Shown in pieces: positions 38,646 through 47,473 of a stretch of 64,000 nucleotides of DNA. This DNA comes from Symbiodinium natans (taxonomy: Eukaryota; Sar; Dinophyceae; Suessiales; Symbiodiniaceae): positions 212,001 through 276,000 of the forward strand of contig CAJNDS010000258.1 of NCBI GenBank assembly GCA_905221605.1, written 5' to 3'. The notes beneath the pieces are model-generated. The model was not told the origin of the DNA, did no database searches, and saw only the letters and a list, made by a program, of their open reading frames with translations. Made by a program: the position numbers and the translations under genes. Position 1 is the stretch's first letter. Each line of letters begins with the position of its first letter.

Positions 38646-38933
38646 TACGGGGGGACAACCAAGGAAGGAAATCAACTCCCCTAATCGCCCTGAACTTATA
38701 TTTCCCAGATCGAACCAAGAAACAACCAAGAACACGGATAAGAGCAACCCAGGGGGGAAGGAAAGGGGGAAGGAATCCACACCCTTACCAAACCCTAAGA
38801 ACCCAGGCACTTCTTTTTTAACTTGTGGCTTTCTGTTCAAGCCCATCTTGAGCCAAATACGATTACCGGGTTCATTAACCCTTCCAACTTCCAACACTAA
38901 CTCCTTTCTACAATACCAATTGCAGCTCCGCAC
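38646..38933 (-). repeat. 3' LTR of the CCCH retroelement
   Basis: This 288-bp copy is identical to the other LTR except for two substitutions (GGAATCCACACC here, GGAACCCGCACC there). On the minus strand it begins GTGCGGAGCTGCA and ends CCCCCCGTA. It contains CCG-N9-TTTGGCTCAAG (about 38847-38869), a spliced-leader-like motif. Confidence 0.9.
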
Positions 38934-38942
38934 TCCCCCTGT
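38934..38942 (-). other. polypurine tract
   Basis: On the minus strand ACAGGGGGA directly precedes the 3' LTR. This is the normal place and composition of the plus-strand DNA primer in LTR retroelements. Confidence 0.6.
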
Positions 38943-39302
38943 CCTAGGATTTCCTAGGACACATTGGAGATGCAGATCTTTTGGCCAAAAACTGCCATTA
39001 CGGCAGCAGCCAGCTGCTTGAAATGCAAATTGTGGTTTAACGTCTTCCAGGACGGAATTATAGCACATTGGCTAACCTACTACCCATAGAGAATCTTTTT
39101 TCACCTTGATCCTCTCATCACTGAAGACTCCTTGGCCTTCTTCACCACAAACCGTGGTCTTCGCTACGCGAAAAGCTACTGACTCCTACTATCAGGGATT
39201 TCCATACCCTTAATAGTAACCACCACATTGTCAGCACATTGGCTGTTCCAGCGCACCGGTCTCCAGAAAGAGAAAAACCATCCCTTCATCCATACCATCC
39301 AA

Positions 39303-40580
39303 TCACTTCTTTTTCCGATTGTTGGCAATCTTGAGGTGAAGTTGCAGCAGAATATACTCCAGGTCCGAAACTGTAAGAACAGGATCCTGTATGCCCCTTT
39401 GAATTGAGGATACCAATCCTTCTCTCTTCGCATCCTCAATCGCCTGGCAAGATTGATCCAGCTCTTCATTCGCATTGGCAGACCCTGGTGCCTCCGCATC
39501 GGATGGACGATCCTTTTCCTCAGGATCTTGCACCATTACCACCTCTTCTTTTTTGGGACTCTGACTTTTCTCCTTCTTCTTTGTCTTTCCACCGACATTT
39601 GACTTTGTGCGCGCTTTTGAGGCTTTTTCCACTGCAGAAACCACCACATTGGATGATGATCCACCCTTCTCAATGATCGCCGGCATCTTCTTCGGCTTTG
39701 GAACCATAAGGGTATAAGGATCTTCGATAGCTGCAGCTTTCCTCTTCTTTTTTACCTTTTTCTTCTCCTCCTCAACGGCAACCTCCGTCTCCGAAGTCTC
39801 AACCACTTCTTTTTCGGCAGGAATATCTTTGCTGGACTCCCCTTCTAGGGACCTCTTTTTCCCTTTTTTGGGATCCTTTTCTTCTCCCAAATTGGCTCGC
39901 TCATACCATATCCTCAGGTCATTGACCCATTCTTCCACCTCCGCGAGCGAAACATCGTACGACTTCACTACTTCGAGAAGTTCCAGCACTGACAACATTT
40001 CAGTGGTCCACGAAACCCATACTTGATCCATTTGGTCAGCATCTCCAGTGAACTTCAGGAGTTTGAACAATGGGTCCGCCTCTGCTCGAGCCAAATCTGG
40101 CTTGCCACCGGAGAGAAATGAAATCGCCTCCATCAACAGTTCCGTCATCTTGGTCTCTTCGTCATAAACCATAAAATCCTCCTCATCATCATCGAACTGT
40201 TCAGGAGGGATCTCCTTTTCTCCACCATTTGCACCAGACTTTCTCCTTGGACCATCCCTTGGGGGTGTCCTTGGAGACCTTGGCCTCTGTTTTTCCAACG
40301 GAACACCATGCTCGAAGACACACCTGTCACCAAATCGACACTTCCCAGACCGAGCAAACTGGACACACCTCACACCAGTTGCATCATGCGAGAACCCACA
40401 ATCCTTTCCAGCGAAACATTCTCTCCCTGCCACATAGTATTTGCACCAATATGAATGTAGCACCACATCATCTTCGGAATGGATGAATTTGCAGTCGTCA
40501 CCAAATTTGCAGCGATCTTTCCCTTTGCCAAACCAATAGCAGAAACCCTTCTTCCTCTTCTCCAAGCGCTTCTGCCTCAT
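39303..40580 (-). CDS. retroelement ORF4, triple CCCH zinc-finger protein
   Basis: A 425-codon frame starts with ATG (MRQKRLEKRKKGF). Three zinc fingers follow at residues about 14-92: CYWFGKGKDRCKFGDDCKFIH-like (C-x9-C-x5-C-x3-H), then C-x8-C-x5-C-x3-H twice (ending CGFSH and CVFEH). CCCH fingers usually bind single-stranded RNA. The rest is acidic, then Lys-rich (TKKKEKSQSPKKEE), and it ends IANNRKKK. It overlaps the end of ORF3 by 83 bases in the +1 frame. Its own ATG could serve an internal or reinitiated start. A nucleocapsid-like RNA-packaging role is an inference from position in an LTR element. Confidence 0.7.
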   Translation of the reverse strand: MRQKRLEKRKKGFCYWFGKGKDRCKFGDDCKFIHSEDDVVLHSYWCKYYVAGRECFAGKDCGFSHDATGVRCVQFARSGKCRFGDRCVFEHGVPLEKQRPRSPRTPPRDGPRRKSGANGGEKEIPPEQFDDDEEDFMVYDEETKMTELLMEAISFLSGGKPDLARAEADPLFKLLKFTGDADQMDQVWVSWTTEMLSVLELLEVVKSYDVSLAEVEEWVNDLRIWYERANLGEEKDPKKGKKRSLEGESSKDIPAEKEVVETSETEVAVEEEKKKVKKKRKAAAIEDPYTLMVPKPKKMPAIIEKGGSSSNVVVSAVEKASKARTKSNVGGKTKKKEKSQSPKKEEVVMVQDPEEKDRPSDAEAPGSANANEELDQSCQAIEDAKREGLVSSIQRGIQDPVLTVSDLEYILLQLHLKIANNRKKK

Positions 40581-47000: not shown

Positions 47001-47119
47001 TCGGGAATCACCTCTTCCAACACCGCTCTTTCACCCAGAGACTCAGCTGCACCATTTCCAGCTCCACCATCTTGTCCACCATCCGAGGCAAGTTGGAGCC
47101 ATCGCTTCGGAGAAGGCAT
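44018..47119 (-). CDS. retroelement ORF1, WW/S1/CCCH protein
   Basis: The first ATG after the 5' LTR (47117-47119) opens 1033 codons, starting MPSPKRWLQLASDGG. The frame also stays open upstream through the LTR, but no ATG supports that. Visible parts are a Glu-rich helix, a WW-like domain at about 220-248 (MWELHLHEDGRQYYYC...ETKWTLP, two Trp 20-odd apart), a long acidic low-complexity region, an S1/OB-like RNA-binding stretch at about 666-735 (GDEIMGLVRCINGYGAFLD; VNGTVKRVEDDGTIILDAF), and a C-terminal CCCH finger at about 967-985 (CRFFNKGRCRNGDGCPYEH). This is a set of RNA-handling modules unusual for a standard Gag. It ends TAG at 44018-44020, inside the start of ORF2. Confidence 0.7.
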   Translation of the reverse strand: MPSPKRWLQLASDGGQDGGAGNGAAESLGERAVLEEVIPDAEEHLEEALVAESPNVGMNPNRDMVSNAEAEGRAVSVPPKPGEKRNWDATGGIDREMEVTVLRVLHKHGYQPSSSTSGRMVDQESQTDLIGEVLQATRRPLNKIKKGPSSSSQGGGSGHKQKGADGFEAAPAAEYAMGEEEILQMEAERLRQLSEEEDEMRQVSERDGFRKDEHLIQACDGTMWELHLHEDGRQYYYCLDTHETKWTLPVVGEKVKSDEVVGSPLGNELEMEAALDSSSSTPKTESTRAFQGSVNSLGEKDFSSTIRDSGPRADGDAPTSGSPDEEGIPGNQANIAGAQHLDREETEALSEGGAAMELVDPEEKMPNEVIGTVSAAEERVVDVVPVVQEGGPGDSEDGEKKLCVTTEEVSSFGAKNSAIQGEKEASGIAGDTDDLKNEAWSANDARVDAPDITWSAKEARVEVHVVVRSTGDCNNGAQVSAAADDGGSQVDALVQPEVSSEERNDKGYTGANEAAVVNDGGNSRLEAMEPKEPAVEESVPAVDDRLNCPAVEEDLPAAEGETKDSNDGSTPMKGEALPSGSSPEVDTERTTADEAKPLAKKKGGPEIQEHKKDELVGLVEQDEQCDPKVKTKDAPGADDTEMVSEERVKKVPRAGALESPGPHCYQEGDEIMGLVRCINGYGAFLDHGDMNVLIPAEGNNAYQFKFGDTVNGTVKRVEDDGTIILDAFLVLEEKKTLRKWKPGGWSTWWTDSWYAGQWYQDSNGQWDWKQEEEQSDEELVVQELSSEERKERQLYGEKIYKALLENGNEEEAYVGKITGMLLGRPMEDLQECVADQAFLNAEARRAYGILQNDGWKPDGTESTGLGKLTTFSRTQYHNALFELACRKRRFSRPVVGEAVATVLNQGEDEFWNALWLDTKLFLQELDGAVQSMSKRENKPMEAYMDPDQYKKAYMTPKTVLSPGYSKLCRFFNKGRCRNGDGCPYEHRRYGEGWPEGGSTDPKNSQEADDEDGNIGDPPQRKVQWMRHSRSGRI

Positions 47120-47170
47120 TGCTTCTTGATCCCAAAACCTTGAAAGAACACTTAACCGCAGGGAACCTAA

Positions 47171-47185
47171 TTTGGGCTCATAACC
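47171..47185 (-). other. primer-binding site, half tRNA-Met type
   Basis: Next to the 5' LTR, plus-strand GGGCTCATAACC equals the anticodon arm of a yeast-type initiator tRNA-Met (loop CTCATAA). The element RNA (GGTTATGAGCCC) would therefore pair with an internal tRNA fragment and not the 3' CCA end. That mode is known from Drosophila copia and yeast Ty5. Confidence 0.65.
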
Positions 47186-47473
47186 TACGGGGGGACAACC
47201 AAGGAAGGAAATCAACTCCCCTAATCGCCCTGAACTTATATTTCCCAGATCGAACCAAGAAACAACCAAGAACACGGATAAGAGCAACCCAGGGGGGAAG
47301 GAAAGGGGGAAGGAACCCGCACCCTTACCAAACCCTAAGAACCCAGGCACTTCTTTTTTAACTTGTGGCTTTCTGTTCAAGCCCATCTTGAGCCAAATAC
47401 GATTACCGGGTTCATTAACCCTTCCAACTTCCAACACTAACTCCTTTCTACAATACCAATTGCAGCTCCGCAC
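47186..47473 (-). repeat. 5' LTR of the CCCH retroelement
   Basis: This is the 288-bp partner of the LTR at 38646. It contains the same CCG-N9-TTTGGCTCAAG motif (about 47387-47409). Telomere-like TTTAGGG variants start immediately outside, at 47474-47560, overlapping the AGGG target duplication. Confidence 0.9.

What the first reader, a model, noticed from the sequence alone, without database searches (positions are those of the whole stretch)
38646..47473. LTR retroelement with six CCCH fingers, WW and S1 modules and no polymerase
The element is structurally complete (LTRs, target duplication, primer site, polypurine tract) and recent, with 2 differences in 288 LTR bases. Yet all of its roughly 2,700 codons encode RNA-binding-type modules and no RT, integrase or protease. 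Non-autonomous elements that keep only gag are known, but 8 kb of CCCH/WW/S1 sequence is far more than packaging would need. It may be a new class of gag-only parasite or a carrier of captured host RNA-binding domains.
Basis: partly seen in the sequence, partly recalled or inferred. Interest (0 to 1): 0.88.

Follow-up and report, generated by a model that had tools for sequence, protein, structure and literature searches.

The report
Polymerase-less partner of telomere-repeat-targeting copia element
An abundant jumping gene in what looks like a dinoflagellate genome carries one huge RNA-binding protein but no copying enzyme, and shares its ends and its exact landing site, telomere-type repeats, with a copia element that has the enzyme.

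Summary
The element is real, but its coding part was misread. It is an 8.8-kb LTR retroelement (minus strand): 287-nt LTRs with 2 differences, a 5-bp CCCTG duplication, a half-tRNA(Met) primer site, and no recognisable Gag, protease, integrase or RT. The "four proteins" are one 2,611-codon frame, broken in this copy but whole in 3 of 12 other long copies fetched. It carries a WW-like and a weak S1-like segment, an MLLE (poly(A)-binding-protein type) domain and 3+3 CCCH fingers. Over the stretch I could compare (about residues 290-1356), dN/dS to sister subfamilies is 0.34-0.37 in three and 0.49 in the fourth (neutral simulation 0.70). In 34 elements examined the outer flank is CCCTA/TAGGG in 28 and a one-base variant in 6, in TTTAGGG-type repeats. 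I found a likely autonomous partner: a copia family with a 3,087-codon frame, the same primer site, an 88% identical 3' terminus and the same target. A 30-nt LTR-PBS junction is identical in at least 21 pol-bearing copies and at least 8 sister copies of the RNA-binding type. Best reading: a non-autonomous element mobilised in trans that keeps a selected RNA-binding protein. It is not "gag-only". What the protein does is inferred, not shown.

The parts
47186..47472 (-). 5' LTR (287 nt, TGCGG...CCGTA)
38646..38932 (-). 3' LTR (287 nt), 2 differences to the 5' LTR
47473..47477 (.). target-site duplication, CAGGG on + (CCCTG in element orientation), at the edge of a degenerate TTTAGGG array
38641..38645 (.). 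target-site duplication, other side
47174..47185 (-). primer binding site GGTTATGAGCCC, complementary to the anticodon arm GGGCTCATAACC of a tRNA(Met)-like sequence of this genome
39303..47119 (-). coding region: one frame of 2,611 codons (MPSPKRW... to ...NNRKKK) in copies L010, L013, L023; in the window copy broken into stretches 44018-47119, 42933-44051, 40498-43047 and 39303-40580
46373..46456 (-). WW-like segment
   Evidence: PRP40-type WW, E 0.011
44945..45124 (-). S1-like segment (under Pfam cut-off)
44573..44761 (-). MLLE (PABC) domain
   Evidence: (E 1.4e-6, above cut-off)
44162..44224 (-). CCCH finger 1
43710..43946 (-). CCCH fingers 2 and 3
40305..40541 (-). CCCH fingers 4-6
38940..38961 (-). 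stem-loop TGTCCTAGG-AAAT-CCTAGGACA beside the PPT, also present in the autonomous partner
38933..38940 (-). polypurine tract AGGGGGAG
47387..47397 (-). 11-nt match TTTGGCTCAAG to the 3' end of the dinoflagellate spliced leader, inside the 5' LTR (also 38847-38857 in the 3' LTR)

Best explanation
A non-autonomous LTR retroelement family that is copied and integrated in trans by a Ty1/copia-type family of the same genome, but that keeps, by selection, one giant RNA-binding polyprotein of its own. Shown by sequence: shared cis signals with the pol-bearing family (PBS, 3' terminus with stem-loop and PPT, LTR ends), the same target in the same register, many near-identical copies, a conserved open frame in sister subfamilies. 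Inferred: the element RNA, probably trans-spliced (the LTR carries a DinoSL relict), enters particles made by the copia Gag-Pol; half a tRNA(Met) primes reverse transcription; the copia integrase inserts the cDNA at CCCTA/TAGGG of telomere-type repeats. The element's own protein (WW, S1-like, MLLE, 3+3 CCCH) most likely coats or escorts the element RNA as an mRNP factor, for example for stability, translation, or delivery to the assembly site through MLLE-mediated contact with translation or poly(A) factors, giving it an edge in competition for the shared particles. The protein's role is the least certain step.
For: No pol or Gag in the frame. Partner locus C613 (L066-L068): one 3,087-codon frame with RVT_2 (E 3.6e-10, above cut-off), integrase (IS481-type transposase model E 1.6e-8; rve E 0.0015 under cut-off), CCCH and CCHC fingers (under cut-off). 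Shared: 199/226 identical positions over 3' UTR, stem-loop, PPT and LTR start; 46/52 over LTR end, PBS and leader. Exact 14-nt PBS core 799 times in the genome, control 2; of the first 100 places listed, 19 have an MLLE match about 2.4 kb downstream and 6 the partner RT about 7.3 kb downstream, opposite-strand control 0 and 0 (25 of 26 MLLE rows and 8 of 8 RT rows on those contigs were given). Identical 30-nt LTR-PBS junction: of the first 100 places, at least 21 lead to the partner RT and at least 8 to the RNA-binding ORF. Target: 28 of 34 elements exactly CCCTA/TAGGG outside, the other 6 CCCGA or CCCTG; duplication identical in 9 of 10 with both ends seen; partner copies 4 of 4 in the same register. 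Selection: dN/dS 0.350, 0.373, 0.338, 0.485 against four sisters, neutral simulation mean 0.70, lowest 0.53 of 40; MLLE 0.14-0.23. Open frame of at least 2,600 codons in 20 of 150 MLLE rows.
Against: The window subfamily's own LTR differs from the partner LTR in its middle; the identical junction was shown for sister subfamilies, and a pol-bearing copy with the window-type LTR end was not found (the query for it did not complete). Other copia families score higher for RVT_2 (150 of 2,237 scored; C613 not among them), so another helper is possible. Selection was measured on about 40% of the frame only; the S1-like part is not clearly constrained (0.73 against L062), two sisters (L063, L065) each show a stop and L063 and L064 need more than one reading frame. 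Among 11 near-identical copies non-synonymous changes are fewer than neutral (54 of 94 shared, 52 of 91 single; expected 71%; p about 0.006 and 0.005), but shared and single changes do not differ. No expression, particle or binding data.
Confidence: 0.72

Rival explanations
1. Passive parasite: the element only needs its cis signals; the long frame is captured cargo kept open by chance or by recent spread from few masters.
For: Most fetched copies have a broken frame (9 of 12 others, and the window), and mobilisation in trans does not need the protein.
Against: dN/dS of 0.34-0.37 (0.485 in one) against sisters at 80-87% DNA identity, MLLE 0.14-0.23, no stop in L062 where a neutral simulation gives 12 on average (lowest 3 of 200); full-length frames in 20 of 150 MLLE rows.
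Confidence: 0.15
2. Own particle: the frame encodes a diverged Gag that makes capsids, and only pol is borrowed (a 'gag-only' element).
For: Long helical-looking stretches without any Pfam match (residues about 1725-2110); CCCH fingers resemble the CCCH finger of the partner's Gag region (48% over 27 aa).
Against: No capsid or Gag match in Pfam or PDB sequences; hhalign against the partner Gag segment aligns only the finger. Fold prediction could not be obtained, so this is not excluded.
Confidence: 0.2
3. Autonomous element with an unrecognisable polymerase.
For: 2,611 codons with large unassigned stretches.
Against: The copia RT of the same genome is recognised at once; no RT, integrase or protease signal in the frame; cis signals and target are those of a pol-bearing family.
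Confidence: 0.03
4. Ordinary host RNA-binding gene that happens to lie between two LTRs.
For: Domain types are cellular (MLLE, WW, CCCH).
Against: Dozens of copies with LTRs, PBS and target duplications at different sites; single uninterrupted frame.
Confidence: 0.01

Closest known systems
Tos17 and BARE-2 (non-autonomous copia elements; Tos17 passages read, PMC3977881; BARE-2 as named in PMC10552921)
   Same: Copia-type cis signals, mobilised with proteins of another element, can be as active as the partner.
   Different: They lack gag and keep pol; this one lacks both and carries a large unrelated RNA-binding frame.
TR-GAG and LARD (plant non-autonomous LTR elements; named in passages of PMC10552921, definitions otherwise recalled)
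   Same: LTRs, PBS and PPT without pol; TR-GAG also keeps a coding region.
   Different: TR-GAG codes for Gag, LARD is non-coding inside; here no Gag is recognised and a 2.6-kilocodon frame is under selection.
Ty5 of yeast (passages read, PMC4700185)
   Same: LTR element with pseudo-copia chemistry sent to telomeric regions.
   Different: Ty5 is guided by Sir4 and, according to that text, not by a DNA sequence; here the insertion has a fixed register in the repeat unit.
SART1 and TRAS of silkworm (listing and abstract start, PMC7265360)
   Same: Retrotransposons specific for telomeric repeats.
   Different: They are non-LTR elements with an endonuclease; here LTRs, a 5-bp duplication and a copia integrase in the partner.
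Ty1/copia elements of Symbiodinium (passages, PMC5890265 and PMC11453091)
   Same: Copia is described there as the most abundant retrotransposon group; partner belongs to this superfamily.
   Different: In the passages I saw, no non-autonomous RNA-binding partner and no repeat-specific target is mentioned.

Membership tests
LTR retrotransposon | paired LTRs, target duplication, PBS, PPT | tested here: met
Ty1/copia superfamily (by own pol order) | PR-IN-RT order in its own pol | tested here: not met
   no pol in the frame; so not filed as a copia member by coding content, only as a partner by cis signals
Ty1/copia superfamily (partner element C613) | integrase before RT in one frame | tested here: met
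   integrase-type match in L067 upstream of RVT_2 in L068, one frame of 3,087 codons
TR-GAG | codes for Gag | tested here: inconclusive
   no Gag by sequence; no fold prediction available
LARD | large non-coding interior | tested here: not met
   2,611-codon frame in 3 of 12 other copies; dN/dS below neutral
BARE-2 / Tos17 type | pol kept, gag lost | tested here: not met
   no pol
non-autonomous element of a named helper | shared LTR ends, PBS and 3' terminus with a pol-bearing family | tested here: met
   (window subfamily: LTR ends only, middle differs)
non-autonomous element of a named helper | mobilisation in trans observed | not testable with these tools
   needs cells
telomere-repeat-specific retroelement | insertions at one position of the telomeric repeat | tested here: met
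   28 of 34 exact, 6 one-base variants; partner 4 of 4; chosen from the 40 best LTR hits, not at random

The most novel reading that the evidence does not exclude
An obligate two-part retroelement: the copia family supplies particle, polymerase and integrase, while the window family supplies in trans an RNA-binding polyprotein (MLLE/WW/CCCH) that both RNAs use, so that the two behave like two genome segments of one system aimed at telomere-type repeats. Visible exchange of coding segments between subfamilies (L062 is like L010 in the S1 part and like L065 in the MLLE part) would then reflect co-packaging.
Probability: 0.25. Interest if true: 0.92.

Novelty: new variant of a known kind. Interest (0 to 1): 0.78.

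Why it matters
Non-autonomous LTR elements usually shrink to cis signals or keep gag. A family present in many near-identical copies that keeps a selected 2.6-kilocodon RNA-binding protein, and no polymerase, suggests that competition or cooperation between retroelements can be fought with mRNP proteins. The system also offers an LTR integrase with near one-base target preference in telomere-type repeats, which as far as my ten paper searches show (open-licence papers only) is described for non-LTR elements but was not found for LTR elements. It makes testable how integration is aimed at a heptamer repeat and how interstitial telomere-type arrays of such genomes grow.

Tried and rejected
Rejected: four proteins with programmed frameshifts (intact copies have one frame). 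Rejected: an RVT_2 partner among the top 150 RVT_2 rows by position (none of the first 100 PBS places lay in front of a listed row by eye); the partner came from a PBS-variant pattern instead. Led nowhere: PAM2 and WW-ligand motifs in both proteins (a few proline motifs, no PAM2); Rfam on the window (none); tRNA scan of the window (none); relatives in viral contigs (none by tblastn); NCBIfam for the ORF (only very weak PABP and S1 matches). Unanswered: count of window-type LTR-PBS junctions.
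Full report
What is there. The window (G000:C258:212001-276000 of a 759-Mb, 2,543-contig genome) holds an LTR element at 38646-47472 on the minus strand. The LTRs are 287 nt, TGCGG...CCGTA, with 2 differences. The same 5-mer, CCCTG in element orientation, lies outside both ends. The PBS GGTTATGAGCCC follows the 5' LTR directly and is the complement of GGGCTCATAACC in a tRNA(Met)-like sequence found 8 times in the genome (6 exact, 2 with one mismatch, control 0); copia-type half-tRNA priming is recalled knowledge. ARAGORN was not run on those places. 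The host is probably a Symbiodiniaceae dinoflagellate: TTTAGGG repeats, a DinoSL relict, and a size near the 761.6 Mb and 2,855 scaffolds given for Symbiodinium natans in PMC8045281 (passages); this is inference.

One frame, not four. I fetched 20 regions around other LTR hits: 8 full-length copies of 8,810-8,848 nt, 2 with internal deletions, 2 matching only from element position 756 on, all 98.5-99.5% identical in their long matches. Three of these 12 (L010, L013, L023) hold one frame of 2,611 codons from the ATG. In the window copy that frame is in four overlapping pieces; the other nine fetched copies are also interrupted. Whether the breaks are decay or assembly error cannot be told here. 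LTR pairs in 11 copies differ at 0, 0, 0, 0, 1, 2, 2, 2, 2, 2 and 8 sites.

Domains. Above Pfam cut-offs in the unbroken frame: MLLE (792-854, E 3.5e-6), CCCH fingers (several models, down to E 1.6e-10), Torus (E 3.5e-13, a model that overlaps CCCH); S1 is weak and under its cut-off. A WW segment (222-249) matches PRP40/FBP11 WW domains (E 0.011 with ORF1; 0.14 with the whole frame). Residues 1236-1297 look SAM- or HhH-like to me (recalled, no Pfam match). No pol, no Gag.

The partner. A PBS pattern excluding the window family gave one place, C613:809625. It lies in a TTTAGGG array in the same register and has LTRs of 232 nt (5') with matching ends. Its single frame is 3,087 codons long, with CCCH and CCHC fingers, an integrase-type match, RVT_2, and, as motifs recalled and not matched by Pfam, a DSGAS protease-like and an RNase H-like stretch. 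The N-terminal 493 aa match no Pfam family. 67 scored copies (of 2,281 first-look candidates) are at least 98% identical over 658 aa; 18 of the 67 have open frames of 3,080 codons or more. The window element and C613 share 199 of 226 positions at the 3' terminus, including the stem-loop TGTCCTAGGAAATCCTAGGACA and the PPT, and 46 of 52 around LTR end, PBS and leader. Between the frames only a CCCH finger is alike.

Shared ends across the two coding types. The 14-nt PBS core occurs 410+389 times, control 0+2. Of the first 100 places listed, 19 have an MLLE match about 2.4 kb downstream and 6 the partner RT about 7.3 kb downstream; on the opposite strand 0 and 0. A 30-nt LTR-PBS junction of the partner occurs 145+143 times with up to one mismatch, control 0; of the first 100 places, all exact, 21 lead to the RT and 8 to the RNA-binding ORF (I gave that script 38 of 67 RT rows and 34 of 281 ORF rows, those on matching contigs, so both are lower bounds). 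These 8 belong to sister subfamilies: the window subfamily has a different LTR end, and the query for pol-bearing copies with that end did not complete.

Target. For 34 elements (the 40 best LTR hits, pairs merged) the 5 bases outside are CCCTA or TAGGG at every end seen in 28, and CCCGA or CCCTG at one or both in 6; with both ends seen the duplication is identical in 9 of 10. TAGGG is CCCTA on the other strand, so this is one site in both orientations. Two or more telomere-type heptamers lie within 80 nt on a seen side in 28 of 34, one in 6. Outside the element the window has 220 CCCTA/TAGGG in 55,172 nt, and telomere-type runs cover 833 of 64,000 nt. Four of four partner copies looked at (C613, C161, C222, C12) have the same register. 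The sample is of the youngest copies and two of the 34 (C2378) may be one duplicated insertion.

Selection. Against sister loci L062, L065, L063 and L064 (80-87% DNA identity), dN/dS over 1,061, 1,062, 1,061 and 577 codons is 0.350, 0.373, 0.338 and 0.485; a neutral simulation with the L062 substitutions gives 0.70 (lowest 0.53 of 40) and 12 stops (lowest 3 of 200) where L062 has none. MLLE is 0.14, 0.17, 0.17, 0.23; the SAM/HhH-like part 0.08-0.11 in three; the acidic low-complexity part 0.60-0.77; the S1-like part 0.73, 0.33, 0.45, 0.39. L065 and L063 each show a stop; L063 and L064 match in two or three pieces. dS jumps between segments (0.06-0.45 in the S1-like part, 1.0-1.5 in MLLE), and the alignment shows L062 like L010 in one part and like L065 in the next: segment exchange between subfamilies. 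In 131 scored matches to a sister stretch of 299 aa, 78-100% identical, 7 contain a stop. Within 11 near-identical copies, non-synonymous plus stop changes are 54 of 94 shared and 52 of 91 single against 71% expected; the two classes do not differ.

Spliced leader. The LTRs hold an exact match to the 3' end of the DinoSL primer CCGTAGCCATTTTGGCTCAAG (PMC8045281, passage): 11 nt in the window, 12 in L069 and L070, 15 (19 of 21 overall) in L071; 1,000 shuffles of the window LTR reach 9 at most. I infer that element RNA is trans-spliced and that the leader was copied into the LTR.

How it most likely works. Shown: cis signals, target, copy number, frame conservation in part. Inferred: RNA packaging by the copia Gag-Pol, priming, integration by its integrase, and an mRNP role of the own protein.

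Known or new. Passages of PMC3977881 (Tos17), PMC10552921 (LARD, TR-GAG, BARE-2), PMC4700185 (Ty5) and PMC5890265 and PMC11453091 (Symbiodinium retrotransposons), and the listing of PMC7265360 (SART1), were compared. My ten paper searches listed no polymerase-less LTR element with such a protein and no LTR element with a telomere-repeat register; subscription papers are mostly not held, and PMC5776459 on heat-activated Symbiodinium copia was not held.

Noticed in passing
LTRs of window 38847-38857 and 47387-47397; L069, L070, L071, L066: Relict of the dinoflagellate spliced leader inside the LTRs of both families, in C613 and L070 with a second GCTCAAG in tandem; suggests trans-spliced genomic RNA.
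   Followed up: partly
L067 (C613:802300-808200): The partner polyprotein has stretches that look to me like a cytosine methyltransferase motif (GGPPC) and a 2OG-dioxygenase motif (HRDSHNE) between Gag and RT; Pfam gives no match.
   Followed up: no
L062 versus L010 and L065: Mosaic structure of sister subfamilies: the MLLE segment is exchanged between lineages.
   Followed up: partly
L014, L016 (C2378): Two copies 34 kb apart match the element only from position 756 on and share the break; probably one duplicated insertion.
   Followed up: no
window 16416-17100, 55604-55750: Further interstitial TTTAGGG/CCCTAAA arrays, i.e. more target sites nearby.
   Followed up: no
window 8787-11584: Three near-identical direct repeats of about 1.25 kb.
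   Followed up: no
window 60913-63036 and 34736-36517, minus strand: ORFs of 707 and 593 aa not examined; both overlap or adjoin repetitive sequence.
   Followed up: no
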